This document shows, piece by piece, positions 244 to 19,954 of a DNA stretch of 64,000 bases. The notes beneath the pieces were generated by a model. That model was not told the DNA's origin. It saw only the letters and a list, made by a program, of their open reading frames with translations, and ran no database searches. Both the position numbers and the translations under genes were made by a program. How positions within the stretch are numbered: the stretch's first letter is position 1; each line of letters begins with the position of its first letter. The stretch comes from a gamma proteobacterium symbiont of Ctena orbiculata (lineage in GTDB: Bacteria > Pseudomonadota > Gammaproteobacteria > Chromatiales > Chromatiaceae): contig QBVC01000015.1 in assembly GCA_003058495.1 (NCBI GenBank), positions 1 through 64,000 on the forward strand, read 5' to 3'.

Positions 244-825
244 TCAGCTAAGTGAATTACTGGCGAAGCCACCCACACGCATTTCCACCTCCTCATCTCT
301 AAAAATAAACATAATGGTCATAACACGCTTGCTGCCAAACCGAATGCGCTCTCCCGCTCGCTTAGCGTACTCGGTGTTTTGAATTTCTTTCAGATCAAAC
401 ACTTTACGGAAGACCTTTTCTTCCAAGGGCGTCCAGGTACAGCCTAATTTTCTTATATATATCTTAGTGTCATCCGTTTTTGGCACTTTTGACCTAAATC
501 TGTCTACCCGACGACAATCACTCAACTCCGCCAACTGCCACTCCACCACAACCTGGTCCGGCAGGGAATTTGGATGGTCGGGAAAGCGGCCTTTGTCAAT
601 AATGTCATCTCTGACTCCCGGTATTCCAGTTCGTATCCTATTGGTACCCGCTGTTGTCTCCGGTGAAATTATTATGACCCCATAATCCCCATAATTGGCC
701 ATCCCTACCGCATACAAAAACTTCGAACAACTAGACAAGGTGATAATACTAAGTACACTCAACAATACAATCCCGAATAGAAAGTACTGCCTATAGGCTC
801 GCGTGATCCTCAGTTTTGTTTTCAT
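244..825 (-). CDS. Lipoprotein, candidate immunity protein for the Rhs-phospholipase toxin
   Basis: This is a 193-residue protein with a basic start, a hydrophobic stretch at residues 15-31 and a lipobox ending LSSC, so it should be a lipid-anchored periplasmic protein. Its ATG overlaps the toxin stop codon in an ATGA arrangement, which implies translational coupling to the toxin at 822-6563. Known Tle1-type phospholipase effectors are neutralised by an immunity protein encoded next to them, often a lipoprotein or periplasmic protein. The role here is inferred from that precedent plus position, because I do not recognise the family from sequence. The mature part has two cysteines (in SDCRR and KLGCTW) that could pair. 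An alternative is an unrelated accessory lipoprotein of the pilus locus. Confidence 0.75.
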   Translation of the reverse strand: MKTKLRITRAYRQYFLFGIVLLSVLSIITLSSCSKFLYAVGMANYGDYGVIIISPETTAGTNRIRTGIPGVRDDIIDKGRFPDHPNSLPDQVVVEWQLAELSDCRRVDRFRSKVPKTDDTKIYIRKLGCTWTPLEEKVFRKVFDLKEIQNTEYAKRAGERIRFGSKRVMTIMFIFRDEEVEMRVGGFASNSLS

Positions 826-3800
826 GGGCGCAAATCACTGTGGTTAATGTCTATGTAGAGACCATAGTGTGCAGTTAACCATTCACTATAGGTATCAATC
901 GCTTCCGTCAGGTTGTTGGCGTCTTCGAGGATAATTGCACCCACCTTGGTCCGGTTACCGCCTCTATCCACCCCCTTTTCGTGGCAGGTATTCTGCCACA
1001 TGAATCCACAGGGGACATCCTCCATAAACCGCTCATCGAAGAACGGCTGGGACTCAGAATAGTCCATGCTGCCATCTCCGGCAGCACCCAGCCATGCCTG
1101 CTGGGTGACAACATCACTGCCGTTGGCATACATGAACTCCCGGTCGGGACCGGAGTAGCAGTAGTACCATTCCGGACATACGTCCACGCTGTTATGGACG
1201 ATAGGATTTGTTACCTCATCCCACAATTCACTCTGCATGTAACCTCTATCCATCTCCACCCCCTCACTCTCCGCCTGCTGCACCATCCACATGAAGGCCA
1301 CATCCGACAGGTCGCCCTCCGCGTAGCCACCGCCGATATCCGAGTGGGCGCCGATGAAGCCACGCTCGATACGGGTGGCGCTGTTGGCCGTCGACGGCGA
1401 GTCGTGAATGGAGACTCCCGCGAAGTCGGTCCGGTGTTCGTTCACCGCCACGGCATGAGCTGCATGGTCGGCAATCGCCGGTATGCCCAGGCGCAACTGC
1501 TGCAGATCGTTGCCCTGGTATGCCCAATAGTGTGGCACGGTGTCGAACAGGCCGATGAAGTTGAGGTTGATCATCAGGTTGCAGTCCCGGTTGAGGTAGT
1601 CGAGGGCAGCTCTCAGGCGATTCATGTCGGCATCGATGGCTGATCCGACATTAGTATCGATAAATGGGTCCTGTTCCCGCCTCAGGTTTTCATAGATATA
1701 GCTAAGATCATCGGCGGCTGCAGGATCGCTGAAATCGGCGCCGGACTGGGCGACCCGAATGATGTCATCGACCACATTGGCAAACATGCGGGCCTCCGCC
1801 GCGCCGCGGGAGAAGCCGACGATGTCGATATCCACCGGAGTGGTGGCGCCCTGCGCTTCCATCTGTTCGATATATTGCACCAGATAGTCGGCCATCTGGG
1901 CGACCCTTTGTTGCAGGCTGACGCCAAATGCTGCATCTGGTGATGGCGCACTGCTAAAATTCGGATCATCCACGCCGGCGCCGGTGATGTAGTAGTAGTC
2001 CCGGTTGGATGCCGTACTCCCGTCCCAGTCGATGTAGGGGGTGACAGGCAGTTCACCGGGGGCACTGCGGTAACTCTCGGCGAAACGCACCACGTTGGAG
2101 ATGTCTCCCGGGTTCTCAGGATCGCGCAGTTCGTCCCGGTTGTTGGTGTTGCCTGTGCCATCGAAGGCGAAGAGCAACAGGCCGGTGGGGTCGATGTTGC
2201 GCACGGGGTCGTTGGCTGCGTAGGCGTAGGTGTTCATACCCGCGTTCAGATCCAGCGGATCGCTGCTGAGGTAGCGGCCTGTCTCCGGATCGTAGTAGCG
2301 ATAGTAGTTGTAGTAGAGCCCGGTCTCGGTATCTTCGTATTGACCGGGGAGCCGCAGGTTGAGTTGGAACGAAATTTGGTCTCCGTCCGGGTCGTCCTCT
2401 ATATGAGCTCGACCGAATGGGGCATAGTGAGCGCGCCAGACAAGCCGGCCCGCGGAGTCGCTCACCGCCACCGGCGCACTCAGGTGGTTGCTGTGGATGG
2501 TGTAGATCTCTCCCGCTTCCAGCAGGGCGACCGGTTGCCAGCCCAGGTAGAGATATTGGCGGACGATCTCTCCCTGTTCATCCATCTCGGCAATGAGGCG
2601 TTTGTTTTCGTAAAGGTAGTGGGTGGTGACCGGGACCGCCTCTCCATAGACTGTCTTACTGATTCGCTCGGCACGATTGTTGTAGCTATAGCTGGCGACC
2701 AGTTCGTCCGCCACCCAGATATGCTCGGGCTGGCCGTTGGCGGTATAGTCTATCTTGGCATCCGCGCTCTGGTGGATGTTGCCCCTACTGTCGTGGACCA
2801 TAGGTATCGCATAGCTATTTAGCGATGCCTGTTTTATGTGGTTACTGTCATCCGCATAATCGTAGTGAACATGGGTGCCATTGACTATTTTTTCGGTGCG
2901 ATTGCCGTTCGCATCATAGCGGTAGCCGTAGAGCGCGAAAGGCATCATGGCAAAGTTAAGACGATCTTCGTTATCATAGCGATAACGGGCATAGGCCTGT
3001 TCTCCATCGTCGATGCCGGATATGGCACCGCTTACGTTGTATTGGTAGCGATAGTCGTGGATACCCTTGGCATGGAGGCCTTCGAGTTTCGTGCCATTAA
3101 AGCGGTAGGTTGTGGTGATGCCGTTACCGAAGCGTATTTGATTCAATAGGTTACTCTCCTTCACTGATGTAAGGATGCTTTTATCACGGAACCATCCGTC
3201 AAGGGATAGGTTCACTCCACCTCGAATGGGATCTTGGCTGTATTTGAGCTTTTGCCCGCCCGGCAGACCGACCTTTTCGAGGCGGCCGGTCTCGTCATAC
3301 CAGTAGCGGGTGGTGTAGTCATGATCTGCATAGGCTCGTGTAAAGGCAGTCATGCGGCCGTTTGGGTCATATTGCCACTGTTCACTCTCTTTTTGACGAT
3401 ATATGGATTGCAGCTCACCTTGGTTGTAGGTCAGGATCACCTCTTCGTCCGGGTAGCGTACTTTCGCCAGCCTACCAGCGGTATTGTATGAAAACACTAC
3501 GCGCTGCCCAGCGGCATCGGTTTTGGAAACCAGTCTGTCTTTTTCGTCGTATTGATAGGTGATAAGGCCCTTGTCCGGACTCTGTGTGAACACCACCCGC
3601 CCGAAATCATCGTAATGGTAGTGGGTTGTGTTGCCGCGCGCATTGGTTACGGCGATCAGCTTGCCGTGGCTTTCACTGGCATAACGCCTGACAATGCCAT
3701 CCGAGGTTATGAGATGCTTGAGTTTGCCAAAGTCGTCATATTCGATTGTGGTAAGCCTACCCGGGGCAATTATGCTGTTGGGCAGTTTTTTCCCCGTCTC

Positions 3801-6563
3801 ATACTCAAACTGGCGGACGATCTGACCGGATTGGTTTTTCAGGGCGATCAATCTTTGGTGATCGTCGTAAACATAGTTCAGTGTGGAGACCGGGACGCCC
3901 GCGACATGCCAGGATTTTTGCTCGATTCTGTTATCTTTGGTCCATTTGTAACGGGTTTCCAGGCGGTCGTTATATCGCCTGATCATCCGTCCCGCCAAAT
4001 CGTACTCCATATTGAGTTCGGTTCCATACATGTCTCTGTAAAGCAACGGCTTGCCCGTGACATCGTATTCAAAACTGAATGTTCCAGCCTGAGTTTCTAT
4101 CGATGCAACGGCTAGATCGGCTGTGTATGAGACCGTTATCGGATTCCCTCCATCAAACTGTATTTCATCGATTTTTCCATATGCATTGTATGAAATATTC
4201 TGGGTCGTACCATCGTAGTTGGCTATTTTCTCAGTGCGTCCATACGAATCTTTTTCTAAGTGTGTGATGTCCGCTATCTGGCTCAAGACACCATCGATAG
4301 AGTGCAGTTGCTGTTTACTCTTGCTCTCGTATTTCAGTTGTACTTCACGTGTAATCGGTGTGAATCCACCTTCAGGTTGCGGGGCAAAACCTTTTTCCTG
4401 CACTTTCTCCGGCTTACCCCGTGCGTTGTAGTCTACCTCCCTGACAAAATCGGCACCGGATTTTACACTGGGTACACTGATTTCAATCGGCATATCCCGC
4501 TCTGCAAGGTACTTAAAGCTAACGACCCTCCGCTCATTCTCTCCGGCTGTTCTGATCAGCTCAGTCACACGCCCCAATTCGTCGTGTGTGTAGTGCAGGG
4601 TAGTACCGTCGCTGTTTGTCTGCGCTATGATCTGGAAACGCTCGTTGTAGCGATAACTCACATCCCCGGGACCACAGCTGGAACAGCCGGGACCATGGAT
4701 GGCAGTGACCAGGGCCACGCCCTCCCTGACCTCGGTGGTGTAGACACTGACCTTGCCCTGGCTGTCCGTGATTCGGGTCTCGCCGGGGCTGCTGAAGTCG
4801 AGTTTGACCTGGCCCACCTGTTCGGCATGGGTGGAGAGAATCGCCCGGTCCTTGTCATCGTATGCCCAGGTGGCGTAACGCACACCCCTCTCATCGGTAA
4901 TACCAGTGAGGTTATGGCTGTCGTGGGGATCTTCGTAGTGGTAGATCCGTGCGGCGCCGTCAGATCTGGTCACTTGTTGTAGGTTGCCGACGGCATCGTA
5001 GCGGTAGCGGGTCTCTTTGCCACCGGGATCATACATGGACTTGAGGCGGCCGTTGGGGTAGTGATCCAGGCTCAGCTCGCGGCCCAGGGGATCGCGCACC
5101 AGGAAGAGTTTGCCCTGGGGGTTATAGAGGAGGCTCAGGGTCTGACCGGTAACGAGCACGATGCGTTGAAGTCGACCTTCCGGGCTGAACTGGAGCTGGC
5201 GGCCGTCGCGCCAGTGCCATGTGAGCTGTTCACTATTGATCCGTAGCCATCCGTCTCTGATACGGGGAGCGATATAGTGATCACTGCTGTCACTGGGGTG
5301 AAAGTGGATGACCCGGCCGTCGCTTTGGCGCAGGCGGTAGCCGTCCCCCACTGCCCATAGACTCAGGTCGTAGCTGTGGCTCCAGCCATAACCAAGGGGA
5401 CCCTTGTAGCTGCTGTGGCTGTTGTAGTGGCGCTTGAAGAGCAGGCCCAGACTTCCGGGTAAGGGGCTGAGATCAACCTCATGCTGATATTTGTTGCCGG
5501 TGACCACGTGGATCGGGTTGCCCTCGTGGCTACCGGCGATACCGCTGGATTGCGAGGTTGGACTGAACGTCTCATCCCCAGGTGTCTCAGGTATTTCGCA
5601 TATAGCCGGACCGTGATCATCACCTTCGCTGATTGACGGGAAGTCTCCTCCATCACTGATCGGTGGTGGATCATCGTCATCACTGTTTTCTTCATTGTCT
5701 TCATCTTGGTTATCGTCGGATGACGGAAGATCCGTATCATCTGATACATTTGTATCACCTGAATCAGCCGTATCATCCGCCTCCTCATCGTCACCCCCCT
5801 GATCCGCTTCATCACCCGGGGAGGCATCACCCGTTTCAGGATCAGTTTCAGTAGGAGGTGGAGTACCGCCACTACCAGGTAGTTCCATATGGACATTGTT
5901 CTCATCCCGCCAGGCATCCGACTGCATGCGTACCGTCGCCACCGAGGTGATTGGTAGGCGGCGGGCGTTGTAGTATTGGCTATTACCCGGATCAACCATA
6001 CGCATCACCGCAGGGATAACCCGATCCATCAGTGGGACTTTAAGTTGATAGCCGTAGGTAACCTTGACTTTGAGCAGGTTGGCGTCCTGGATGTTGACGC
6101 CACTGCTGCCAATATCGCGTTGACGCCAGCGCAGGTGACTGTTAGGGATGCCGAAGTGGACATGACCCGTGCGGGGATCGACGATTTCGCGGCCGAACTC
6201 GTCAAAGGCCTCGATGGTGGGATTGATGATCTCGATCTCGGTGAAGCGCCGATCCTGAACATCAAGGCTTGCACGGGTGATTGCCGATATCGCTCTATCA
6301 GCGCTGCCGTCGCCGCCGAACAAAGGAGCCAGGCGTAAGCCTAGCTGCTCGCGCATAGCATCACTCTGTGCATGGTTGACCGCGCCCTCGCGGGCCGCCT
6401 CGAAAGTAGCGTAGTTGATGGTTGTCTTGGCGTCAAACAGAAGGGCTGTCTGCAGACCACCAAGCCCCATCAGCAGCAGTGCCGGCAGAGAGACCAGCAA
6501 CTCGGTCATGGCTGCGCCTGAGTATCTTTTTAAGAGACGGTTCAAGTTCCTTTTGATGTGCAT
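822..6563 (-). CDS. TadE-like prepilin / Rhs / DUF2235 (Tle1-type phospholipase) fusion toxin
   Basis: This 1913-residue protein has three parts. Residues 1-230 look like a TadE minor pilin: a basic leader, a prepilin-peptidase motif with cleavage predicted after Gly16 (SG|AAMTE, Glu at +5), one hydrophobic helix, and the usual pilin C-terminal segment. A very acidic low-complexity linker follows (about 235-345). From about 348 to 1460 there is an Rhs shell: a DUF6531-like start (HVVTGNKY), many YD repeats (YDxxGR), and the Rhs core end with YYDPETGRYLSSDP and IDPTGL. Residues 1465-1913 are a DUF2235 alpha/beta hydrolase with FDGTGN, the nucleophile motif GFSRG (Ser1585), FDTV (Asp1674) and GAHSDIGGGY (His1740). 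That is the triad expected of Tle1 phospholipases. The start has an AGGAG ribosome site. No PAAR or VgrG part is present. Function as a pilus-borne antibacterial lipase is inference. Confidence 0.88.
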   Translation of the reverse strand: MHIKRNLNRLLKRYSGAAMTELLVSLPALLLMGLGGLQTALLFDAKTTINYATFEAAREGAVNHAQSDAMREQLGLRLAPLFGGDGSADRAISAITRASLDVQDRRFTEIEIINPTIEAFDEFGREIVDPRTGHVHFGIPNSHLRWRQRDIGSSGVNIQDANLLKVKVTYGYQLKVPLMDRVIPAVMRMVDPGNSQYYNARRLPITSVATVRMQSDAWRDENNVHMELPGSGGTPPPTETDPETGDASPGDEADQGGDDEEADDTADSGDTNVSDDTDLPSSDDNQDEDNEENSDDDDPPPISDGGDFPSISEGDDHGPAICEIPETPGDETFSPTSQSSGIAGSHEGNPIHVVTGNKYQHEVDLSPLPGSLGLLFKRHYNSHSSYKGPLGYGWSHSYDLSLWAVGDGYRLRQSDGRVIHFHPSDSSDHYIAPRIRDGWLRINSEQLTWHWRDGRQLQFSPEGRLQRIVLVTGQTLSLLYNPQGKLFLVRDPLGRELSLDHYPNGRLKSMYDPGGKETRYRYDAVGNLQQVTRSDGAARIYHYEDPHDSHNLTGITDERGVRYATWAYDDKDRAILSTHAEQVGQVKLDFSSPGETRITDSQGKVSVYTTEVREGVALVTAIHGPGCSSCGPGDVSYRYNERFQIIAQTNSDGTTLHYTHDELGRVTELIRTAGENERRVVSFKYLAERDMPIEISVPSVKSGADFVREVDYNARGKPEKVQEKGFAPQPEGGFTPITREVQLKYESKSKQQLHSIDGVLSQIADITHLEKDSYGRTEKIANYDGTTQNISYNAYGKIDEIQFDGGNPITVSYTADLAVASIETQAGTFSFEYDVTGKPLLYRDMYGTELNMEYDLAGRMIRRYNDRLETRYKWTKDNRIEQKSWHVAGVPVSTLNYVYDDHQRLIALKNQSGQIVRQFEYETGKKLPNSIIAPGRLTTIEYDDFGKLKHLITSDGIVRRYASESHGKLIAVTNARGNTTHYHYDDFGRVVFTQSPDKGLITYQYDEKDRLVSKTDAAGQRVVFSYNTAGRLAKVRYPDEEVILTYNQGELQSIYRQKESEQWQYDPNGRMTAFTRAYADHDYTTRYWYDETGRLEKVGLPGGQKLKYSQDPIRGGVNLSLDGWFRDKSILTSVKESNLLNQIRFGNGITTTYRFNGTKLEGLHAKGIHDYRYQYNVSGAISGIDDGEQAYARYRYDNEDRLNFAMMPFALYGYRYDANGNRTEKIVNGTHVHYDYADDSNHIKQASLNSYAIPMVHDSRGNIHQSADAKIDYTANGQPEHIWVADELVASYSYNNRAERISKTVYGEAVPVTTHYLYENKRLIAEMDEQGEIVRQYLYLGWQPVALLEAGEIYTIHSNHLSAPVAVSDSAGRLVWRAHYAPFGRAHIEDDPDGDQISFQLNLRLPGQYEDTETGLYYNYYRYYDPETGRYLSSDPLDLNAGMNTYAYAANDPVRNIDPTGLLLFAFDGTGNTNNRDELRDPENPGDISNVVRFAESYRSAPGELPVTPYIDWDGSTASNRDYYYITGAGVDDPNFSSAPSPDAAFGVSLQQRVAQMADYLVQYIEQMEAQGATTPVDIDIVGFSRGAAEARMFANVVDDIIRVAQSGADFSDPAAADDLSYIYENLRREQDPFIDTNVGSAIDADMNRLRAALDYLNRDCNLMINLNFIGLFDTVPHYWAYQGNDLQQLRLGIPAIADHAAHAVAVNEHRTDFAGVSIHDSPSTANSATRIERGFIGAHSDIGGGYAEGDLSDVAFMWMVQQAESEGVEMDRGYMQSELWDEVTNPIVHNSVDVCPEWYYCYSGPDREFMYANGSDVVTQQAWLGAAGDGSMDYSESQPFFDERFMEDVPCGFMWQNTCHEKGVDRGGNRTKVGAIILEDANNLTEAIDTYSEWLTAHYGLYIDINHSDLRP

Positions 6564-6673: not shown

Positions 6674-7696
6674 TTACTCTGAATGAATGTCTTCTGGGAT
6701 AATAATTGCTGCCGCAAAAAAGTCATTGTTTGTCAGTTGTTGCTGCTCATCAATCGTGCCATCATTGTTCCTATCCAAAACCACTTGGATATTATCGAAC
6801 CCAGCTATAGTGACGTCGATTCTGTGTCCTTGTATGATCAAGAAATAGCTACCCGAATATAAACCATTCTCATCAGCCCTCATGTCATCCAATACCGTTG
6901 TGGTGTACGAGAAATCGCTATTTTCTTTATCATGAGCTTCTGTATCCCAGTAGAGTTGATTTACGGATATCGAGTCATCAAAGTATCTTTCAAATACCAT
7001 TCTGGAAATACGAACTTTATCATCTTCATAATGCGGTGTTGCAAGTTGACCCGTTCTTGGGTTGCCCTTGAATGATCCATCAATTTCATAGCGATCCGAG
7101 TTAATTCCAATAACACTTTCTTCACCAAGCACTTCATTCTTAATTCGCATATTCTTTATCTTCGTTTCACCATCAACACTCCCATTGCTAACAACTTCAA
7201 GTAGTTGTCTTGACTCAACATTACTTACTTCATCGTATTCGATAAAAACAATTGAGTAGTTTCCTTCCTTAACACCATCTCCCTCATCACACTGCAGAAA
7301 TGTTGTAGTCATACTGTCGCCCGAACTGAGAGATCTGGCAGGCCCGGATTTTTGCATATTTACATTCTTTTCACCACCGATTTCGCAAGCCATTACTTCT
7401 TGACCACTATCATTATAATAAAGTGCCATATGGGCGAAGATTGTATCAGCCGCATAAACGCCACCCAGACTGGACTGGGTCACATAGACCCTTGCTGCTG
7501 TTCCCACGTAGTCTTCGGATACAGGAAGAATGTCTACATTACTATTGTCGTTGCCAGACGTACCATCACCAAGTCCATCATTTTCCCCATTACCGCTGCC
7601 TCCACCTCCACATGCAACTAAAGTACATGCAAAAAATATTGCGATACTAAATTGAGAAAGCAAACTTGAGTATTTAGAGTTGATTACAAGGTCCAT
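6674..7696 (-). CDS. Large exported lipoprotein of the Tad locus, unknown function
   Basis: The 340-residue product has a signal peptide and a lipobox ending LVAC, followed by a glycine/asparagine-rich spacer (GGGGSGNGEN). The rest is beta-rich in appearance with no family I recognise. Near the C-terminus it carries a calcium-loop-like motif, DRNNDGTIDE, similar to the one in the lipoprotein at 8743-9348. An AGGAG ribosome site stands just before the ATG. It is the gene immediately upstream of the Rhs toxin, with a 110-bp gap. It could be a surface-exposed pilus accessory, an adhesin or a toxin-loading partner. The start of the mature protein resembles the small lipoprotein at 19955-20353 (CGGGGS), which links both to the same locus. 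Confidence 0.75.
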   Translation of the reverse strand: MDLVINSKYSSLLSQFSIAIFFACTLVACGGGGSGNGENDGLGDGTSGNDNSNVDILPVSEDYVGTAARVYVTQSSLGGVYAADTIFAHMALYYNDSGQEVMACEIGGEKNVNMQKSGPARSLSSGDSMTTTFLQCDEGDGVKEGNYSIVFIEYDEVSNVESRQLLEVVSNGSVDGETKIKNMRIKNEVLGEESVIGINSDRYEIDGSFKGNPRTGQLATPHYEDDKVRISRMVFERYFDDSISVNQLYWDTEAHDKENSDFSYTTTVLDDMRADENGLYSGSYFLIIQGHRIDVTIAGFDNIQVVLDRNNDGTIDEQQQLTNNDFFAAAIIIPEDIHSE

Positions 7697-7865: not shown

Positions 7866-8351
7866 TCAGTATCGGATCAATCCCGCAGCAGGCGATGGCA
7901 GATCACTGATCGGTTTGTAGATAATCCCATGCAGCCGGTTGAGTTTTTCTTCTATTACCCTGCGCTCATAGCTCGACTCTGCGGCTAACCGCTGCGCCAT
8001 CTGTAACGACTGGTGGGCCATCAATAGGTAGGCTTCCGCCAGATTATGGTGAGGTTTCGGCTGTCTTGCATCACGCTGCAGCGAGGCGTTGTAAGCGTGA
8101 ATCGCTGCTTGGATATTGCCTTGATGGAGCCGCGAGTTGCCCAGCCTGAACCAGGCATAGAAGTCTTTAGGCGCAACCTCTGTGATAGCCCGATAGTGTC
8201 GCTCAGCCTCCACCCATCTACCCTGTTCATAGGCCCTATCCGCCAACTCAAGACGAGTGAATGCCTTCTGTTTGGGCGCCGTCCCGCCACAGGCTGTAAG
8301 TACCAGAATCAACATCGCTAGAATCGCTTGTGCTAAAGTGTTCTTATACAC
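7866..8351 (-). CDS. tadD: TPR lipoprotein, TadD-like
   Basis: This product of about 161 residues begins at a GTG preceded by AGGAG with five-base spacing; a longer reading frame upstream lacks such a site. It has a signal peptide with lipobox LTAC and then two to three tetratricopeptide repeats (for example ADRAYEQGRWVEAERHYRAI and FRLGNSRLHQGNIQAAIHAY). TadD is the TPR lipoprotein of Tad loci that is needed for secretin assembly or stability, and the position downstream of tadABC fits. It overlaps or abuts the DUF192 gene upstream, so it is probably in the same transcript. The assignment to TadD rests on TPR plus lipobox plus context. Confidence 0.8.
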   Translation of the reverse strand: MYKNTLAQAILAMLILVLTACGGTAPKQKAFTRLELADRAYEQGRWVEAERHYRAITEVAPKDFYAWFRLGNSRLHQGNIQAAIHAYNASLQRDARQPKPHHNLAEAYLLMAHQSLQMAQRLAAESSYERRVIEEKLNRLHGIIYKPISDLPSPAAGLIRY

Positions 8352-8362
8352 ATCGACTCCTT

Positions 8363-8731
8363 TTAAGCATCTTCCCAAGTGAAGCTGTCGTTGACCGAAA
8401 TACCTTGACTGCTGATTGTTCCCTGGTTTATTTCAAGCGTGTAGTAGGCACCGCGAGCAGATACGCTTCGAAAAGGCATGACCCCTTGAATACACTTCAA
8501 AACCATACCTTTTTTGTCCATGAAGATGATATCCAAGGGATAATGCATACCAACTGTGTGGACAGCAGCGCAACGGATGAGCAGCAGACCTTCATTATCG
8601 CCGAGCCGCTTCTTACCCAGGAGGCCGAGTAGTCGGCTCAGAAATGTGTCGGCCAACCATGCCTCGAGCTCGGAACCATCATGTATCAATTCGCTATTCA
8701 TAGCGTGCTTTTTCAGTCTTACCCGTTTCAT
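8363..8731 (-). CDS. DUF192 family protein
   Basis: The 122-residue protein matches the DUF192 fold: an N-terminal leader-like start, the segment FLSRLLGLLGKK, the conserved CAAVHTVGMHYPLDIIFMDKKG region, and the C-terminal ALEIN-type motif here read as YTLEINQGT. DUF192 proteins are small beta-rich proteins of unknown function, often exported. This copy has no obvious signal peptide. Such genes occur in some Tad loci, and here it lies between an Ig-like lipoprotein and tadD with minimal gaps, consistent with co-transcription. A biochemical role cannot be assigned. Confidence 0.85.
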   Translation of the reverse strand: MKRVRLKKHAMNSELIHDGSELEAWLADTFLSRLLGLLGKKRLGDNEGLLLIRCAAVHTVGMHYPLDIIFMDKKGMVLKCIQGVMPFRSVSARGAYYTLEINQGTISSQGISVNDSFTWEDA

Positions 8732-8742
8732 GACCGTCTGTT

Positions 8743-9369
8743 CTATTCCGTTACCTGAACCTCATCCTGACTCTCGGTAGTCTCATCAGCCGGCTCCTCT
8801 TCGGTTTGAGTCTTGATCTCCATCGCATCGTATCCATCTCCTGCATACGCGTGCAGCGTTGCACGGTAACCGCCACAAGAGGTATTGGTCCTTACGATCA
8901 CAGTCTTTGTACCGTGGTATTTCTCAGTCTTGGTGGCATATAGAATGGGGTCGCCGGTACCACTCACCAGTTCCTGTGGATGATCTATTACACCATTGTT
9001 GTTAAGGTCATCATAGAGGTGAAATATATGTAGATTTTCTTGTTGTGGAGGCGAGGTAGAGTTGGAGGGCGAGAGATAGATTTCCAAGTCCATCTCGCCA
9101 ATCGGTCTTCCACTCGCATCGGCGACCGTTATAACCATTACGTTATCCTGATAGTCATCTGAGAAGTAGATGCACTGACCCTGGTCATCAAGATACTCAA
9201 TCACAGTCCAGGAATAAGCTGATGGAGCGATGGTGACATTGGCGCCTGGTGGAAATTGCTCGTTTTGGTTATTACACGCCACTGATAACAGAGCAACAGC
9301 GCCTATGCACAGCCGGTTACAAAAGCGTTTTGTATGTATAGTATTCATAGAAAGAACGAGTGACTTCAT
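8743..9369 (-). CDS. Ig-like domain lipoprotein of the Tad locus
   Basis: The reading frame gives 208 residues. A second methionine (MNTIHTK, start at 9348) is an equally plausible start. The signal sequence ends in a lipobox LSVAC. The mature part has the pattern of a bacterial Ig-like domain (VMVITVADASGRPIGEMDLEIYLS), then a calcium-loop-like segment (DDLNNNGVIDHPQEL) and an acidic tail rich in Glu and Thr. Four cysteines remain after the lipobox Cys. It starts eight bases after tadC. Ig-like folds in Tad or pilus loci usually act in surface display or adhesion, which is the best inference here. Confidence 0.75.
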   Translation of the reverse strand: MKSLVLSMNTIHTKRFCNRLCIGAVALLSVACNNQNEQFPPGANVTIAPSAYSWTVIEYLDDQGQCIYFSDDYQDNVMVITVADASGRPIGEMDLEIYLSPSNSTSPPQQENLHIFHLYDDLNNNGVIDHPQELVSGTGDPILYATKTEKYHGTKTVIVRTNTSCGGYRATLHAYAGDGYDAMEIKTQTEEEPADETTESQDEVQVTE

Positions 9370-9377
9370 AGTTATCC

Positions 9378-10298
9378 CTAACCTGGCCAGTTAAAGGCCC
9401 ATATCAACGGTTTGAAGATGGGCCATGTCATCACACCCTTTTGGATTGCGCTGCTGAGAATGACAAAGATGATGATTAAAAAGGTGTTTGGGAAGATAAA
9501 CATGACCAGGGGCCCCAGCAGCTTGACCGGCGCTTCCATGGCCTGCTTTTCGGCTCTCTGGAACCGGGCCGATCTCAGTTGGTCCGCCTGAGCCTTGAGA
9601 ACCGGTCCCAGACTGGAGCCGGTTTTCTCTGCCTGTATGATACTGCTGACCACATTTCGCACACTTTCCGTGTCTATGCGATCCCCCAAGTCTCGAAGCG
9701 CATCGGCACGTGGCTTGCCTGCGCGAACATCCCGCAGCACCCTGACGAACTCTTGTCTGAGAGGGCCATTGGTTGCCTTGTTGACAGCCTGTTGTAATCC
9801 GCCGGTGAAGTTGGTGCCGGCTTCAACGGCTAGGATGATGATATCTAGATAAAAAGGCAGTTCCCTGAAAATGCATCTATTTCTTTGCTCTGTAGCCTCC
9901 CGTAACCATAACTCTGGATAGAAAAATCCGCCCACCAATCCGAGTAGTGTTATATACCATGCGTCTGATCCAAGCATATTGAGAAACAAGAAAGTGAATA
10001 GCGAAAAGAAAACAGATGCGATTACTTTTCCTGCAAAATACTGTTCCGGGGACAACATGTAGTCAAGTCCTGCTTTTCTTAGCCTTAACAGTGTGACAAT
10101 GCGGTAATTCTTCGTTATCAAAGCACCGAAATAGTGAACAAATGCGTTTACCAGGGGCCATGTCAAACGGTAACCCATGGGTGGACGATCGAGATAGGAT
10201 CTATCCTGAACAGGTACCAAAGCAAACACCCTGTAGGTGTTCCATATGATCATCGCCAGGATTGCACCGAAGAAAAGACTTATTATGATCAGTTCCAT
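9378..10298 (-). CDS. tadC: Tad pilus inner-membrane platform protein TadC
   Basis: The 306-residue product has a T2SSF/GspF-type domain in the middle (LPFYLDIIILAVEAGTNFTGGLQQAV, then RVLRDVRAGKPRADALRDL and VSSIIQAEKTGSSLGPVLKAQA) with membrane helices at the N-terminus, around residues 90-130 and at the C-terminus. TadC pairs with TadB as the polytopic platform on which the TadA ATPase acts. It begins four bases after the tadB stop, so coupling is likely. Its length and domain layout are normal for TadC. Confidence 0.93.
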   Translation of the reverse strand: MELIIISLFFGAILAMIIWNTYRVFALVPVQDRSYLDRPPMGYRLTWPLVNAFVHYFGALITKNYRIVTLLRLRKAGLDYMLSPEQYFAGKVIASVFFSLFTFLFLNMLGSDAWYITLLGLVGGFFYPELWLREATEQRNRCIFRELPFYLDIIILAVEAGTNFTGGLQQAVNKATNGPLRQEFVRVLRDVRAGKPRADALRDLGDRIDTESVRNVVSSIIQAEKTGSSLGPVLKAQADQLRSARFQRAEKQAMEAPVKLLGPLVMFIFPNTFLIIIFVILSSAIQKGVMTWPIFKPLIWAFNWPG

Positions 10299-10301
10299 TG
10301 C

Positions 10302-11150
10302 TTAGATATCTATATTGACTATTTTGCGGATCATCAATCCACCGATCATCTCGAGTATCAGGATGATACAAAGAAATATCCATCCTAGAAGATTGGTGAA
10401 AATAGGCTCGATGTTCGCGCGATCAACGAAATAGAGCGCACCGATAATGAACATTGGTAATAAACCTACTACCCATCCCTGGAGTACGCCTTGGGCGGTC
10501 AATGCCTTGATCTTGCCCTCCATCGCCATTTTTCGCCTCAGGCTGTCTGCCAATCGCTGAAAAATCTCTGATAAGTTACCTCCCACCTCATTTGCGATCT
10601 GAGTGGCTGTGACAACCAAATCTATCTCCTCTGCCTGTACCCGTTCTGCCAGATTATCCATTGCTTCTGCCAACGACATCCCCAGGCGTTGTTCTCTCAA
10701 TACCAGAGAAAATTCCTGGCTTATGGGACCCGTTGTCTCTTTCACCATGGTTTCCACAGCCGATAGAAAGGTCTGCCCTGCACTCATGCCGCCTGCGATC
10801 TGCACCAAGACATCCGGAATTGCACTTACAAGCTTTTCCTTTCGCTTCTTCTCCATTCTTATGAGTAATAATCTTGGTATTAACAGCAATGCAAGAATCG
10901 ATAAAACCACATAAAAGAGCGTATTTGTTATAAAATAGATGGATACGGGGATGCCCAGAAGCGTTACTATGTTTAAGAGGAACATTTTTTTTGCATCCAC
11001 AAATAAAAACAGACTCTCTAATTGAGTCTCAGTCCGCTCTGTAAATGCTTTCTTGTAGCGGTCATAACCTTGGATGCCGTATACCAGTATCACCCATATC
11101 ATGAGACTGAGACCTAGAAACACAAGAGCGAGTATGAGGTAGATCTCCAT
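10302..11150 (-). CDS. tadB: Tad pilus inner-membrane platform protein TadB
   Basis: This 282-residue membrane protein has an N-terminal helix, a further pair of helices around residues 55-95, a GspF-like cytoplasmic domain with the motifs SAIPDVLVQIAGGMSAGQT, LREQRLGMSLAEAMDNLAERV and VTATQIANEVGGNLSEIF, and two C-terminal helices. It forms the Tad secretion platform with TadC. The start ATG overlaps the stop of tadA as TAATG, which indicates translational coupling. The gene order tadA-tadB-tadC is the standard one. Confidence 0.93.
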   Translation of the reverse strand: MEIYLILALVFLGLSLMIWVILVYGIQGYDRYKKAFTERTETQLESLFLFVDAKKMFLLNIVTLLGIPVSIYFITNTLFYVVLSILALLLIPRLLLIRMEKKRKEKLVSAIPDVLVQIAGGMSAGQTFLSAVETMVKETTGPISQEFSLVLREQRLGMSLAEAMDNLAERVQAEEIDLVVTATQIANEVGGNLSEIFQRLADSLRRKMAMEGKIKALTAQGVLQGWVVGLLPMFIIGALYFVDRANIEPIFTNLLGWIFLCIILILEMIGGLMIRKIVNIDI

Positions 11151-12844
11151 TAGTTGGAATCAACCTGGCTATTATCAAAGATACCAAGATCCACAGGTAC
11201 ACCGATCGAGTTGAGTGTCTCATAGAATGACGGTACGAATCCCGTGGCGATGAAGTTACCCCATACTTTTCCCTGCTCGTCGAATCCTCGCTGTCTAAAT
11301 TCGAAGATATCCTGCAACTGAATTGTGTTTCTTTCGATTCCTGTAACCTCGGTAATCTTTGTGATCTTCCTGGAACCACAGGCATAACGCGTCTGTTGAA
11401 CGATGATATTGACTGCTGATGCGACTTGTTCGCGAATCGCGGTAACAGGTAGGTCCATACCTGCCATCAGAACCATGACTTCCAGCCTCGAGAGAGCATC
11501 TCTTGGACTGTTGGCATGGGCGGTTGTGAGTGAGCCGTCATGCCCCGTATTCATGGCCTGCAACATATCGAGTGCTTCACCCCCCCGGCACTCACCAACC
11601 ACAATCCTGTCAGGGCGCATACGCAGGGTGTTTTTCACTAGTTCGCGAATGCTTACCGCGCCTCGTCCTTCAAGGTTCGCTGGCTTTGCCTCCAATGAGA
11701 CAAGATTTGGTTGATAAAGCCGCAGCTCTGCGGCATCCTCCACAGTGATGATGCGCTCACTATCAGGAATAAAATTTGAAAGCACATTGAGCAAGGTTGT
11801 CTTGCCAGATCCTGTGCCGCCGGATACGATAATATTTTTCCTTTGTTCGACACAAATCTTGAGAAAATCAACCATGGCATGACTTATCGAGCCATATTTT
11901 ATTATATCGTTGAACGTCAAGCGTTGTTTGGCAAACTTTCTAATCGTGAGACTGGGGCCTTTTATCGCTAAAGGCGGTATGATCGCATTGACACGTGATC
12001 CGTCTTTGAGACGTGCATCCACCATTGGACTACTCTCATCGATGCGTCTTCCCAGAGGGGTGATGATACGCTCGATTACCGACAAGACAGCCTGGTCACT
12101 ACTAAAGCTCTCCCCACTTTTTACCAGTTTTCCTGCACGCTCCACGAATATTTCCCTGTGGTTATTGACCATGATTTCAGTAATCGAGTCATCTTCGATG
12201 AAACGTTCTAGGGGACCGAGCCCGACTGCTTCATTAAGTACACTGACTCTCAGCTTGCCAAGCTCGAAATGATCAGGCAGATCAGGCTTTAATCGCACAA
12301 TAATCTGATCTATCAGATTTTCCGCTTCAACTCTAAGCTGGTCATCTGACATGCTGTGAACGTCCTTGCGCCGCAGGTCCATTTCCGATATCAGCTGTTC
12401 GTGTATTATTCTTGTCCAGTAGAGTATTATCTTTTGTTCTTCTGCTGTCTCGCCCTGTTGATTAATATCGCCCAGTCCTAAGGCATTTTCTTGTGTATGA
12501 TATTGTTGAATTCCGTCGTTATCTGATATTTGTGGGAATACCAGATCTCGGTTGTTGTCTAGTTCGACCCTGAGACTAACATCACCGATGGTTATCTCAT
12601 CATGGTTATTTAAGGGACCATAGTTTATGACGCGTTCACGATTGACCCAGGTTCCGGTTATACTGCCATGGTCCTCAATATGTACTTGATTGTCTTTCGC
12701 ATACAGGGTGGCATGCCTTTTTGCAATATGACGGTGCTTGATCACCAGGTCGCTGTGACGGGCACTGCCGATAACGCACCTGTCCCCTTTTACGGTATGA
12801 CGGCTTCTTCTTTTTCTTCCTTGTTGATAGTGAATTTCAAACAC
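11150..12844 (-). CDS. tadA: Tad pilus ATPase TadA/CpaF with an N-terminal FHA domain
   Basis: The 564-residue protein starts at a GTG. Residues 1-95 form a forkhead-associated domain (CVIGSARHSDLVI, KRHATLY, GTWVNRERV), a phosphothreonine-binding module. The rest is a type II/IV secretion ATPase: Walker A SGGTGSGKTTLLN with Lys348, the Asp and His boxes, and the Walker B region RIVVGECRGGEALDMLQAMNTGHDG. It powers pilin export and pilus assembly. Canonical CpaF/TadA is shorter and lacks FHA. In some loci a separate FHA protein exists, so this fusion may bring phospho-dependent control or localisation directly to the motor. It sits between the secretin and tadB genes. Confidence 0.93.
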   Translation of the reverse strand: MFEIHYQQGRKRRSRHTVKGDRCVIGSARHSDLVIKHRHIAKRHATLYAKDNQVHIEDHGSITGTWVNRERVINYGPLNNHDEITIGDVSLRVELDNNRDLVFPQISDNDGIQQYHTQENALGLGDINQQGETAEEQKIILYWTRIIHEQLISEMDLRRKDVHSMSDDQLRVEAENLIDQIIVRLKPDLPDHFELGKLRVSVLNEAVGLGPLERFIEDDSITEIMVNNHREIFVERAGKLVKSGESFSSDQAVLSVIERIITPLGRRIDESSPMVDARLKDGSRVNAIIPPLAIKGPSLTIRKFAKQRLTFNDIIKYGSISHAMVDFLKICVEQRKNIIVSGGTGSGKTTLLNVLSNFIPDSERIITVEDAAELRLYQPNLVSLEAKPANLEGRGAVSIRELVKNTLRMRPDRIVVGECRGGEALDMLQAMNTGHDGSLTTAHANSPRDALSRLEVMVLMAGMDLPVTAIREQVASAVNIIVQQTRYACGSRKITKITEVTGIERNTIQLQDIFEFRQRGFDEQGKVWGNFIATGFVPSFYETLNSIGVPVDLGIFDNSQVDSN

Positions 12845-12848
12845 TTTT

Positions 12849-13967
12849 TCAGTCCAGGATATTGAATTTGAGCCGCTTGTCTAGCTGATCGACGGTATTC
12901 TGTCTTATTCCCATCATGCGCTTCGCCCTCTGATCGTATGTTTCTTCCACCTTCACGACTTCCGGGGTTAGAAAGACGACCATTTCAGACATCTCCTGCT
13001 GCAGGTCATCGGTACTGAAGAGACCGCCTACCAGCGGTATATCTCCCAACCCAGGTATCTTACTTGTACCTCTACCCTGCTTTGCCTTTAACAAGCCTGA
13101 GATAATGATCGTTTGACCAGAATGGACATTGACAATAGTCTCAGTCTCATTCGTCAGGATTCCAGGTACACCCAATACTGTAGTGGACTGATCGATTTCA
13201 CTGACTTCTGCTTTAATCGTTGTATAAATCTGATTTTTACTGTTTGCCTTTGGTGATATATCTATTTTGATACCGTATTGTTTGAACTCAACACTGGTGC
13301 CTCCGTTTTGATTAGTAACTGGTATCGGATACTCACCTCCCGATATAAATTTTGCTGTACCTCCATTTACACAACTCAAAACAGGTTCTGATAGTACGAC
13401 TGCATCACCGTCTGATGCCAAGAGGTTTATACGGGATGTAAGACTGGTTGCAATCCCGAAATAGGAGGTAAACGGCTTCACACGAAGCGGCAGCTGACTG
13501 CCGTCGATAGCCGACGCCGGTGACCTGAACATGGAATTTGAAAGAAAATCACCCACTGTAGCAAAAGTCGGGCCAGTGATATCCTTTGACCAGTCAATAC
13601 CTAGTTTCGATAACGCGCTTTTTCTGAACTCAACCATCTTGACACTGATCCTTATCATGCTATCCATCCGAACACGCTTTTCTGGGTCCTTTTCAGTCAC
13701 CCTAATTGTGTACTGGGTGTAGCTTCCATCCTTGTTCCATAAACGTATTGATGTACTTCCCGCCTTCTCACCGATGACCAGCAACTCATCAGAACTAAGT
13801 ATTTCCAGCTTGACTATACCTGCTTGACCTATTGCGACTCGGTCCACATAGACTTTGCCGAGTATTTTCACCTCACCAACGAACAGATCGATATTTGTTG
13901 CAAAAACCCCTGTTGACAAAATCATCAAGCAAAGAGATATTCCTGTGTTTATCCATTTATTCACCAC
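12849..13967 (-). CDS. rcpA: Tad pilus outer-membrane secretin RcpA/CpaC
   Basis: The likely start is a GTG at 13967, which has AAGGGA upstream and gives a clean signal peptide (NKWINTGISLCLMILSTGVFA). A TTG at 14009 overlapping the previous stop is the alternative. The 372-residue product has an N-terminal pilus-secretin domain (GEVKILGKVYVDRVAIG, GSTSIRLWNKDG) and a C-terminal secretin domain with VNVHSGQTIIISGLLK, IPGLGDIPLVGGLF and MVVFLTPEVV. It forms the outer-membrane channel through which the Flp pilus emerges. The length is slightly short for the family. It follows rcpC/cpaB directly. Confidence 0.92.
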   Translation of the reverse strand: MVNKWINTGISLCLMILSTGVFATNIDLFVGEVKILGKVYVDRVAIGQAGIVKLEILSSDELLVIGEKAGSTSIRLWNKDGSYTQYTIRVTEKDPEKRVRMDSMIRISVKMVEFRKSALSKLGIDWSKDITGPTFATVGDFLSNSMFRSPASAIDGSQLPLRVKPFTSYFGIATSLTSRINLLASDGDAVVLSEPVLSCVNGGTAKFISGGEYPIPVTNQNGGTSVEFKQYGIKIDISPKANSKNQIYTTIKAEVSEIDQSTTVLGVPGILTNETETIVNVHSGQTIIISGLLKAKQGRGTSKIPGLGDIPLVGGLFSTDDLQQEMSEMVVFLTPEVVKVEETYDQRAKRMMGIRQNTVDQLDKRLKFNILD

Positions 13968-14005
13968 GTATAGATCGTCCCTTTGATATCTTACATCGCC
14001 ACGAA

Positions 14006-14848
14006 TCAACTTCCACTGCCACCAATAATGTACTCGATACCCTTCTCTTTCTTTTCTAATCTTTTCTGTACACTCTTTATTGGTTTTGGCTTATTGAAAA
14101 GACGCGCTACCGTCATGGGCTCATCACTGATCGGTTTTTCGTCATGGGGAGGTCGTAGTAGCGCCGTAATCTTGCCTAACGTCCTTGCCAAGGTTATTTT
14201 TTCTGCTATTTCAGGCGTCACCACTACTGTAATTATGCTGTATGGATCTGCAACCTGCCTACCCGTCTTGTCGATACGTGTTTTATTGCCAGTTGCTACT
14301 ACATGTAAATTTTGTATTATTGGAATAACCTGGTCGTTATAATCGAGCAGCAGATCTATTTTATCATTTGGCTGCAAAAAACCAGATATTGAATTGACTT
14401 TATCGACAGTAAATGACAATGCTCTTGTACCAGGCTCCAGCTTACCGGAAAATGTAGGGTACACACCCCCCTCGAGATGCGCCCATAACAGGGGACGACC
14501 TTCGGTGATATCAAAAGATACTTTTTGACCAACAGCTGTATTGAATGTCGCTTGGGTCACGGCATTTTTATGCGCATACTTGGCTGGGATATCCCGCTTT
14601 ACAAAATCACGCAATGAGACGATTGAGCCACGTGGAATGTTTCTATTCGGCACGACAAGGGTCACCATCTTTTCTGTTTTTTCCAGTTGACTCCTGTAGT
14701 AGTTGATCTTTTTTTCTATAAAGTCCTTGGTCAGGTACACACCGCCTACCCCCACAGTTAGAGAAATGACAAGCATGATCACATTTTTGTTTATTATTCT
14801 CTGCTTTTTGTGCAAACCTGCCACTTCCTTGGCATTAATCACATCCAT
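14006..14848 (-). CDS. cpaB: Tad pilus assembly protein RcpC/CpaB
   Basis: I chose the ATG at 14848 because GGTGA stands five bases upstream; a TTG lies four codons earlier. The product of about 280 residues has one N-terminal membrane helix (VIMLVISLTVGVGGVYL) and a SAF domain beginning VTLVVPNRNIPRGSIVSLRDFVKRDIP, followed by the RcpC-type C-terminal domain (GTRALSFTVDKVNSISGFLQPNDKIDLLL). RcpC/CpaB proteins are periplasmic, associate with the secretin and may bind peptidoglycan. The position just before the secretin gene is typical. Confidence 0.92.
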   Translation of the reverse strand: MDVINAKEVAGLHKKQRIINKNVIMLVISLTVGVGGVYLTKDFIEKKINYYRSQLEKTEKMVTLVVPNRNIPRGSIVSLRDFVKRDIPAKYAHKNAVTQATFNTAVGQKVSFDITEGRPLLWAHLEGGVYPTFSGKLEPGTRALSFTVDKVNSISGFLQPNDKIDLLLDYNDQVIPIIQNLHVVATGNKTRIDKTGRQVADPYSIITVVVTPEIAEKITLARTLGKITALLRPPHDEKPISDEPMTVARLFNKPKPIKSVQKRLEKKEKGIEYIIGGSGS

Positions 14849-14863
14849 AAAATTCACCAAATA

Positions 14864-16608: not shown

Positions 16609-16692
16609 GCTTATGTTCCCTATAGGCAGTTGCATAATCTGATTACATTTTATTTACGTAATTAATCCTCACTCTATACATGATTTCCCAAC

Positions 16693-19858: not shown

Positions 19859-19954
19859 GATCTGCTCAATCTCTAATCCTTTAAATAAAAAGACCATCAC
19901 CATAGCTACAGGAATCGAATCTATATACATAGTTCACAGCATCCCCAAGACGTT

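What the first reader, a model, noticed from the sequence alone, without database searches (positions are those of the whole stretch)
822..6563. A Tad-pilin/Rhs/Tle1 fusion: a polymorphic toxin apparently carried by a Flp pilus and not by a type VI spike
One reading frame of 1913 residues joins a TadE-type prepilin (cleavage motif G16|AAMTE and a pilin helix), an acidic linker, a full Rhs shell and a DUF2235 phospholipase with all three catalytic residues (Ser1585, Asp1674, His1740). In known Rhs effectors the N-terminal slot holds a PAAR or another type VI adapter; here it holds a pilin domain, and the gene ends a complete tad locus. The direct reading is that the toxin is inserted in the inner membrane as a minor pilin, processed by the prepilin peptidase and displayed at the pilus base or tip. 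This would be a delivery mode I do not know to be described.
Basis: partly seen in the sequence, partly recalled or inferred. Interest (0 to 1): 0.97.

Follow-up and report, generated by a model that had tools for sequence, protein, structure and literature searches.

The report
Toxins built onto Tad pilus pilins
This gene, from a bacterium of a genus that lives in the gills of lucinid clams, makes a bacterial toxin fused to a component of a surface pilus; relatives carry different toxins on the same pilus part, most with a likely antidote gene beside them, which suggests a way of delivering toxins that does not seem to have been described.

Summary
Confirmed. Window 822-6563 (minus strand) is one open frame of 1913 aa: TadE prepilin, acidic linker, Rhs core, Tle1-like phospholipase. 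It ends a tad locus and overlaps a small lipoprotein gene, the likely immunity gene. It is not a lone oddity. In Ca. Thiodiazotropha and eight other gammaproteobacterial genomes with unbroken fusions, related TadE domains carry different tails: two kinds of Tle1, a WHH/colicin-type nuclease, PT-HINT toxins without Rhs, several beside PoNi, SUKH or other immunity-type genes. Window and L021 are 88% identical in TadE, 2% in the tail. Two copies in one genome match 97-100% over most of TadE and diverge on both sides. Untailed TadE holds the same slot in related tad loci. Betaproteobacteria keep TadE and a signal-peptide Rhs as neighbours. Outside the genus 7 of 10 carriers tested lack the T6SS sheath gene; 11 of 11 have a tad ATPase. 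Against: three Thiodiazotropha genomes with this N-terminus lack tadA; delivery is unproven. Closest precedent: Kil Tad-pilus tips. Nine searches of open-access PMC listed no such fusion.

The parts
822..6563 (-). TadE-Rhs-Tle1 fusion gene, 1913 aa
6516..6563 (-). prepilin leader (residues 1-16) ending in the G16|AAMTE motif
   Evidence: motif read from sequence; G16/E21 in 61 of 61 relatives with residues there (62 rows)
5874..6515 (-). TadE pilin domain (residues 17-230)
   Evidence: PF07811 above cut-off; alignments A1 and A3
5523..5873 (-). acidic low-complexity linker (residues 231-347)
   Evidence: about one third Asp/Glu (printed before the script stopped)
2178..5522 (-). DUF6531 and Rhs core (residues 348-1462) ending in DPTGL
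   Evidence: matches solved Rhs shells 8h8a, 8cp6, 7q97
825..2177 (-). Tle1-like phospholipase tail (residues 1463-1913)
   Evidence: PF09994; catalytic blocks aligned, weakly, with 4o5p and 9j3f
244..825 (-). lipoprotein gene overlapping the toxin stop by 4 bases; probable immunity gene
   Evidence: homologues follow the same Tle1 tail in L022 and L023 and, twice, in L176; no Pfam match
6674..7696 (-). lipoprotein of unknown function between the TPR gene and the fusion; homologues near other Thiodiazotropha TadE-Rhs genes
   Evidence: no Pfam match
7866..8378 (-). TPR lipoprotein (TadD/pilotin-like)
   Evidence: Pfam TPR; nearest recognised gene before TadE in 23 of 53 untailed loci
8363..8731 (-). 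DUF192 protein, conserved in these tad loci
   Evidence: nearest recognised gene before TadE in 27 of 53 untailed loci
8743..9369 (-). lipoprotein of the tad locus
9378..10298 (-). TadC
   Evidence: T2SSF
10302..11150 (-). TadB
   Evidence: T2SSF
11150..12844 (-). TadA ATPase with N-terminal FHA domain
   Evidence: T2SSE and FHA
12849..14009 (-). secretin RcpA/CpaC
   Evidence: Secretin, T2SS-T3SS_pil_N
14006..14860 (-). RcpC/CpaB
   Evidence: RcpC
15048..15800 (-). protein of unknown function conserved in tad loci
15766..16635 (-). TadF-like minor pilin with GNATVE motif
   Evidence: motif read from sequence; no Pfam match
16693..18591 (-). TadG-like minor pilin
   Evidence: PF13400 Tad; homologues beside other TadE-Rhs copies
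18710..19003 (-). Flp-like major pilin, 97 aa, motif G|QGMTEY
   Evidence: 40-41% identity to Marinobacterium homologues in tad loci; no Pfam match
19169..19930 (-). DUF4412-like protein of the locus
   Evidence: weak PF14371, below cut-off

Best explanation
The gene encodes a polymorphic toxin whose trafficking domain is the TadE minor pilin of the bacterium's own Tad pilus. Proposed working: the prepilin leader inserts the protein in the inner membrane with the toxin on the periplasmic side (inferred from the family); a prepilin peptidase, probably the single Peptidase_A24 enzyme on another contig, cuts after G16 (inferred); TadE joins TadF and TadG as the priming tip complex (inferred from Kil work, PMC12075869); extension by TadA/TadB/TadC carries the tip through the secretin to a neighbour on contact (inferred); the tail is freed at the Rhs end, or by PT-HINT in the non-Rhs members, and acts in the target (inferred). 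The Tle1 tail would attack membrane phospholipid from the periplasm, which suits a lipoprotein immunity gene. Shown by sequence: the fusion, the pilin motif, the tad slot, tail swapping, immunity-type neighbour genes, TadE near-identity between copies within some genomes, and occurrence in genomes without a detectable T6SS sheath gene. The main targets are probably other bacteria.
For: TadE, DUF6531, RHS_repeat and Tle1 pass their curated cut-offs; the small RHS model PF03527 does not (24.6 against 27.9 bits). The fusion is the only TadE above cut-off in this genome, and both such TadEs in G004 and both in G016 are fusions. Untailed TadE follows TPR or DUF192 in 50 of 53 loci; of the 16 tailed loci, 6 follow TPR, 2 follow TadA and 8 have no recognised tad gene within 3 kb, one of them for want of upstream sequence. 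Tail swapping: window and L021 share 88% in TadE, 47% in the core and 2% in the tail; L021 and L024 tails are 85-98% identical over about 360 columns, then 50% or less; Rhs- and HINT-tailed TadEs intermingle on the tree (corrected labels: starred branches force at least 5 changes of the HINT label among 7 rows and 5 of the Rhs label among 12). Neighbour genes: PoNi_C beside two HINT toxins, SUKH near one, ankyrin repeats beside one Rhs-HINT toxin, lipoproteins beside Tle1 tails. TadE near-identity: G004 copies 97-100% in bins 3-7, against 77-88% between the window and the four G004 and G016 copies in bins 2-6. Genus co-occurrence: tadA in 11 of 14 genomes with this N-terminus and 0 of 8 without; TssC in 12 of 14 and 7 of 8 (one-sided Fisher p 0.0005 for tadA, relatedness ignored). 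Outside the genus 7 of 10 distinct carriers tested lack TssC, 7 of the 8 with unbroken fusions; 11 of 11 have tadA.
Against: No experiment. Three Thiodiazotropha genomes (G006, G012, G021; drafts of 180-440 contigs) have the N-terminus but only remote ATPase matches; all three have T6SS matches. In G006 and G012 only a TadE piece at a contig end is seen, so fusion is shown for G021 alone. The window genome itself has T6SS sheath matches. G005 and G019, which lack TssC, have tadA but truncated fusions. Within-genome likeness is not general: G016's copies are 80-86% alike, G001's 81-98%; G007's copies match in Rhs as well (97-100%), as a recent duplication would; and copies in different genomes can be just as close (G004/G020 95-98%, G007/G018 91-96%). 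Broken copies are common (L027, L042, L043, L076, L085). A secretin lumen of 62 angstroms with a 31-angstrom gate (PMC10499894, passages) may be too narrow for an Rhs cocoon. One tail (L036) is cadherin-like rather than toxin-like. No structure could be predicted. The window's Rhs end reads DPLDLNAG where the published cleavage motif begins DP(I/L)GxxGG.
Confidence: 0.66

Rival explanations
1. The TadE-toxins are T6SS effectors: the hydrophobic N-terminus works like the transmembrane segments of PAAR-type Rhs effectors, and the tad linkage is incidental.
For: T6SS TssC matches in 19 of 22 Thiodiazotropha genomes including this one; the three genomes with this N-terminus but no tadA all have a T6SS match; Tle1 and Rhs are common T6SS cargo (recalled).
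Against: No PAAR or other T6SS adapter domain was found in P0001 at E up to 0.01; 7 of 10 distinct carrier genomes tested outside the genus lack TssC, both Marinobacterium strains included; TssC does not track the N-terminus in the genus (12 of 14 against 7 of 8); the neighbouring Rhs genes of the split form begin with what read by eye as Sec signal peptides, whereas T6SS cargo is loaded in the cytoplasm (recalled).
Confidence: 0.1
2. A two-step system in which TadE only anchors the toxin in the periplasm and the Tad machine exports it like a type II pseudopilus, with no stable display at a pilus tip.
For: Betaproteobacteria keep TadE and a signal-peptide Rhs as separate neighbours; the secretin gate is narrow; the Kil authors also suggest T2SS-like delivery (PMC12075869, passage).
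Against: Where fused, toxin and TadE are covalently one unless cut; a Flp-like major pilin gene is present.
Confidence: 0.15
3. The proteins serve mainly as pilus-tip adhesins or host-directed effectors in the clam gill; Rhs is a binding shell and Tle1 acts on host membranes.
For: Thiodiazotropha are gill symbionts; the Rhs part also matches a teneurin-like protein (9pt5); one tail carries cadherin-like domains.
Against: Downstream immunity-type genes and a bacteriocin-like nuclease tail; occurrence in Marinobacterium and in bins not labelled as symbionts.
Confidence: 0.07
4. A decaying or accidental fusion with no present function.
For: Truncated or broken copies exist (L027, L042, L043, L076, L085).
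Against: Intact long frames in many genomes, a conserved prepilin motif and near-identity of TadE between copies within some genomes.
Confidence: 0.02

Closest known systems
Kil Tad-like pilus with interchangeable minor-pilin Tips of Myxococcus xanthus (Herrou et al. 2025, PMC12075869; Seef et al. 2021, PMC8460266)
   Same: TadE/F/G-like minor pilins with variable C-terminal domains; extra tip gene clusters away from the core locus; contact-dependent killing; the authors suggest that a general prepilin peptidase (PilD) processes some of the pilins.
   Different: There the large variable domain sits on the KilN/TadG pilin, no toxin gene was identified (the words immunity, polymorphic and Rhs do not occur in the 2025 paper), and a T3SS-like complex takes part. 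Here the variable domain sits on TadE and is a recognisable toxin with its own neighbour gene.
Rhs polymorphic toxins, including T6SS Rhs effectors (Tse5, Tse15, RhsA, Tre23)
   Same: DUF6531, YD-repeat core, DPxG end motif, variable C-terminal toxin, downstream immunity-type gene.
   Different: The N-terminal module is a TadE prepilin; no T6SS adapter found; carriers without a detectable T6SS sheath gene exist.
Pretoxin-HINT (PT-HINT) polymorphic toxins with PoNi or SUKH immunity genes
   Same: L031, L063, L072, L075, L098 and L101 have PT-HINT before a short tail; L072 and L098 are followed by PoNi_C genes and L075 has a SUKH gene nearby.
   Different: TadE prepilin N-terminus; four of the six (L031, L075, L098, L101) lie in tad loci.
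Tle1 phospholipases (PF09994; 4o5p, 9j3f)
   Same: GFSRG, GLFDTV and HSDIGGG blocks.
   Different: Fused behind TadE and Rhs instead of delivered by VgrG or PAAR.
Pilus-borne cargo of other type IV filaments (TcpB/TcpF, T2SS pseudopilus; cited in PMC12075869)
   Same: A minor pilin carries or docks an exported protein.
   Different: Cargo there is a separate protein; here it is covalently fused and polymorphic.

Membership tests
Polymorphic toxin system (Rhs type) | constant N-terminus and core with an exchangeable C-terminal toxin | tested here: met
   TadE 88%, core 47%, tail 2% between window and L021; L021/L024 tails diverge after about 360 columns
Polymorphic toxin system (Rhs type) | toxin-specific immunity gene directly downstream | tested here: met
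   of ten downstream proteins scanned, PoNi_C (2), SUKH (1, second gene downstream) and ankyrin (1); four had no Pfam match and two only chance-level ones; Tle1 tails are followed by lipoproteins; neutralisation itself untested
Polymorphic toxin system (Rhs type) | DUF6531, Rhs repeats and core end motif | tested here: met
   the window's end motif is degenerate (DPLDLNAG)
T6SS Rhs effector | PAAR, VgrG, Hcp or other T6SS adapter at the N-terminus | tested here: not met
   only TadE, DUF6531, RHS models and Tle1 at E up to 0.01
T6SS Rhs effector | carriers possess a T6SS | tested here: inconclusive
   TssC present in the window genome and 12 of 14 genus genomes with this N-terminus, absent from 9 of 12 handles (7 of 10 distinct genomes) outside the genus
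TadE minor pilin | PF07811 match and G|xxxxE prepilin motif | tested here: met
TadE minor pilin | encoded in the TadE slot of a tad locus | tested here: met
   window yes; of 16 tailed loci, 8 are next to tad genes and 8 are not
TadE minor pilin | processed and built into a pilus tip | not testable with these tools
   needs biochemistry; structure prediction never ran
Tle1 phospholipase | PF09994 with Ser-Asp-His blocks | tested here: met
   activity not tested
Kil-type Tad tip complex | TadE/F/G-like trio with a variable tip domain | tested here: inconclusive
   all three genes present, but the variable domain is on TadE and not on TadG/KilN; no Kil sequences were compared
Tad (Flp) pilus locus | Flp pilin, TadA, TadB, TadC, secretin, RcpC | tested here: met
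   the Flp-like gene has no Pfam match
Tad (Flp) pilus locus | dedicated prepilin peptidase TadV in the locus | tested here: not met
   one Peptidase_A24 hit in the genome, on contig C24

The most novel reading that the evidence does not exclude
Tad pili of a range of Proteobacteria are a dedicated toxin-injection system: the priming tip pilin is itself an exchangeable polymorphic toxin (Rhs or HINT type) with a cognate immunity gene, and extra tadG plus tadE-toxin cassettes elsewhere in the genome act as alternative warheads kept compatible with the machine by gene conversion of the pilin segment.
Probability: 0.5. Interest if true: 0.94.

Novelty: new variant of a known kind. Interest (0 to 1): 0.88.

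Why it matters
If right, it adds a delivery route to polymorphic toxins and gives Tad pili identifiable warheads. The Kil authors suggest that one tip carries or associates with an unidentified toxic activity (PMC12075869); here the tip pilin and toxin are one gene with an immunity-type neighbour, so the idea that Tad pili deliver toxins becomes directly testable, in culturable Marinobacterium as well as in symbionts. It would also point to a weapon by which lucinid symbionts may compete.

Tried and rejected
T6SS absence as an argument in the home genome: rejected, T6SS sheath matches are present. A fixed tad linkage for all copies: rejected, 8 of 16 tailed loci have no recognised tad gene within 3 kb. 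Flp pilin by Pfam: no hit over the cut-off in 22 genomes; weak hits in relatives led to the gene at 18710-19003. PADLOC scan of the fusion, its neighbour and L098: nothing. Rfam and tRNA scans of the window: nothing. PDB search with TadE profile A1: no hit up to E 1. Plasmid search with the TadE domain: one 'TadE family protein' of Moraxella bovis, 32%, not followed up. A Pfam name for the accessory protein beside HINT fusions: no hit over cut-off. Structure prediction: thirteen attempts, queue always full, so no fold evidence exists. Tree labels: L102 (split) and L085 (broken HINT fusion) were entered as 'plain' and L094 was left out; one search repeats the tree with these mended, and its counts are the ones used. 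In one search L085 still stands among the 53 'plain' rows. 'Plain' or untailed means no long fused tail; whether such loci have separate toxin genes was checked only by similarity to the window's Rhs and Tle1 parts.

Full report
WHAT IS THERE. The frame at 822-6563 is on the minus strand, uninterrupted, 1913 aa. Pfam finds TadE at residues 16-58, DUF6531, RHS repeats and a Tle1-like catalytic domain at 1465-1763, above their curated cut-offs; the small RHS model PF03527 is below its own. PDB searches place the Rhs part with solved Rhs shells (8h8a, 8cp6, 7q97) and the tail, weakly, with Tle1 chains; Ser1585, Asp1674 and His1740 lie in the aligned blocks. The TadE profile has no solved relative.

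THE LOCUS. The genes run on the minus strand with gaps of -35 to 187 bases between neighbours: a lipoprotein, a DUF4412-like protein, a Flp-like pilin (18710-19003), TadG, TadF-like, an unknown, RcpC/CpaB, secretin, FHA-TadA, TadB, TadC, a lipoprotein, DUF192, TPR lipoprotein, a second lipoprotein, the fusion, and a lipoprotein overlapping the fusion's stop by 4 bases. The window begins at base 1 of its contig, so nothing beyond 1 can be read. The genome's one Peptidase_A24 match is on another contig. The Flp-like gene has the G|xxxxEY pattern (the pattern is recalled) and 40-41% identity to homologues in Marinobacterium tad loci.

THE ORGANISM. Contigs of several same-genus genomes match, by length and match position, named records of Candidatus Thiodiazotropha and of 'gamma proteobacterium symbiont of Ctena orbiculata'; one (G013) is named only 'Chromatiales bacterium'.

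A FAMILY OF TOXINS ON ONE PILIN. The N-terminal 230 residues match 19 of 93 genomes searched, 14 of 22 in the genus, the window's genome included. Tails in the genus: Tle1 in window, L022 and L023; another Tle1 type in L026 and L032; a colicin-DNase/WHH nuclease in L024; an unassigned tail in L021 that shares its first part with L024; other tails in L028 and L036, the latter cadherin-like. L031, in a tad locus, has no Rhs but PT-HINT and a short tail. Among 80 loci fetched from named genomes (223 relatives found, best 80 kept), long fusions outside the genus are L059, L061 and L074 (Rhs, tad locus), L075, L098 and L101 (PT-HINT, tad locus), L063 and L072 (PT-HINT, no tad genes in the flank), and L076 (DUF6531/Rhs, no tad genes in the flank, frame interrupted by one stop). 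A class sample of 369 genomes gave 32 with this TadE type, of which 7 had frames of 547 aa or more; two of those (G119, G148) are TadE-Rhs with Tle1-like tails and no tad genes in about 10 kb upstream. Genomes outside the genus with unbroken fusions: G093, G094, G095, G096, G098, G099, G119 and G148.

SWAPPING. Pairwise identities in TadE, core and tail: window/L021 88/47/2, window/L022 88/79/82, L021/L022 (same genome) 95/46/3, L021/L024 87/82/69. On the TadE tree HINT-tailed and Rhs-tailed rows intermix; L059 (Rhs) and L063 (HINT), from one genome, are sisters. With corrected labels (67 rows) starred branches force at least 5 changes of the HINT label and 5 of the Rhs label. DNA profiles: the two G004 copies are 63% and 79% identical in the first two bins, 97-100% in bins 3-7 and 43-49% in the linker. 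G020 (98 and 100% in two bins, 75% in the one before) and G010 (100% in one bin, 82% before) run the same way as far as they can be read. G007's copies are 94-100% alike in TadE and 97-100% in Rhs, which a recent duplication would also give. G016 (80-86%) shows no homogenisation and G001 is mixed (81-98%). The window is 77-88% identical to the four G004 and G016 copies in bins 2-6, but G004/G020 (95-98%) and G007/G018 (91-96%) show that copies in different genomes can be close too. I read the sharp edges in G004 as gene conversion that keeps the pilin module matched to the resident machine; that is an inference.

IMMUNITY. The downstream genes change with the tail: lipoproteins after Tle1 (window, L022, L023; another type after L026 and L032), PoNi_C after L098 and L072, ankyrin repeats after L061, SUKH as the second gene after L075, a 130-aa protein after the L024 nuclease, and three related lipoproteins after L028. 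Of ten such proteins scanned, four matched an immunity-type or repeat family; the rest matched nothing above cut-off. For L074 no plausible small gene stood close behind the frame, and the L101 stretch ends too soon to tell. Neutralisation is inferred.

SPLIT FORM. In Massilia rhizosphaerae (L079), Verminephrobacter (L094), Delftia (L102), a betaproteobacterial bin (L115) and a gammaproteobacterium (L181) a shorter TadE gene is followed by an overlapping or adjacent Rhs frame that starts with what reads by eye as a Sec signal peptide; in Massilia it ends in Tle1. Neighbour in one lineage and fusion in another supports a functional link of TadE and Rhs.

SLOT. In one search, untailed TadE follows TPR or DUF192 in 50 of 53 loci. 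Tailed: 6 of 16 follow TPR, 2 follow TadA, 8 have no recognised tad gene within 3 kb (L054 has no upstream sequence). The window, G004 and G016 copies are not in that set; the window, L021 and L024 are in tad loci, L022 and L023 are not. Copies outside a tad locus sit beside a tadG in five genomes (G004, G016, G021, G020, G010: L022, L023, L025, L048, L050), reminiscent of the separate tip gene clusters of Kil.

MACHINE. In the genus tadA (E up to 1e-80) is in 11 of 14 genomes with this N-terminus and 0 of 8 others; TssC in 12 of 14 and 7 of 8 (tests, relatedness not corrected). The three without tadA (G006, G012, G021) have only remote ATPase matches; their copies break off at contig ends, so they may be remnants or may use another machine. 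TadA is in all 11 carriers: in the locus itself for G093-G096, G098 and G099, and at other places for G097, G119, G148, G271 and G431; G431 was not tested for TssC. Most of these are MAGs, in which absence is weak evidence; the two Marinobacterium records are strain genomes.

MECHANISM. Best reading: a tip pilin that is itself the toxin. Processing, incorporation, delivery and target are inferred. [quoted passage not shown] Either the gate widens, the tail leaves the shell first, or export is T2SS-like. The HINT members, without a shell, avoid the problem.

LITERATURE. Searches of the PMC open library: (9 of 10 allowed); judged by title and abstract start, none of the papers listed concerns a TadE-toxin fusion (one search listed 20 of 22 and 25 of 53), and 'TadE' with 'toxin domain' gave 0 papers. 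Read: PMC12075869 (outline, sections 8 and 16 in full, passages); PMC8460266, PMC10433427, PMC10499894, PMC11461821, PMC11171427 and PMC13137333 (passages only). PMC3482391, the 2012 polymorphic-toxin survey (word search in the first 300,000 of 354,187 characters), has no occurrence of Tad, TadE, pilin, pilus, prepilin or 'type II secretion'. Subscription papers and preprints were not searched, so 'not described' means not in these searches.

VERDICT. The toxin-system identity is near certain; delivery by the Tad pilus is likely but untested. Filed as a new variant of polymorphic toxins and of Tad-pilus tips.

Noticed in passing
L031:11759-12412, L072:11634-12308 and 14583-15077, L075:11325-11885 and 13197-13664, L098:15645-16241: A family of proteins with apparent signal peptides and no Pfam match above cut-off lies downstream of four HINT-type TadE fusions; among the fetched loci and the window it hit nothing else, apart from overlapping copies of these same loci (L056, L179). 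Possibly an accessory or chaperone.
   Followed up: partly
window 6674-7696; L022:14531-15529; L028:15673-16695; L035:1433-2431: A lipoprotein of unknown function accompanies several Thiodiazotropha TadE-Rhs genes but gave no match in the fetched tad-locus stretches of L021 and L024.
   Followed up: no
L042:9567-10673 and L043: In G005 and G019 the tad-locus fusion stops at or just after the start of DUF6531; these two genomes also lack TssC.
   Followed up: partly
L085:7935-8777: Marinobacterium marinum has a TadE frame close to those of M. iners and M. mangrovicola, but the frame is broken before the HINT part.
   Followed up: no
L036:3002-4801: One TadE-Rhs-type protein ends in cadherin/Ig-like domains rather than a recognisable toxin.
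   Followed up: no
L098, L101, L042, L043: In these tad loci the TadE gene follows tadA directly and no TadB/TadC homologue was found in the fetched stretch.
   Followed up: no
L021, 876-1871 bases after the fusion end: A frame that looks to me like a REP-type transposase lies just downstream of the L021 toxin and its neighbour gene, a possible source of cassette movement (recognised from memory, not searched).
   Followed up: no
window 11150-12844: TadA carries an N-terminal FHA domain; the first Kil paper also mentions predicted FHA domains in the kil genes (passage).
   Followed up: no
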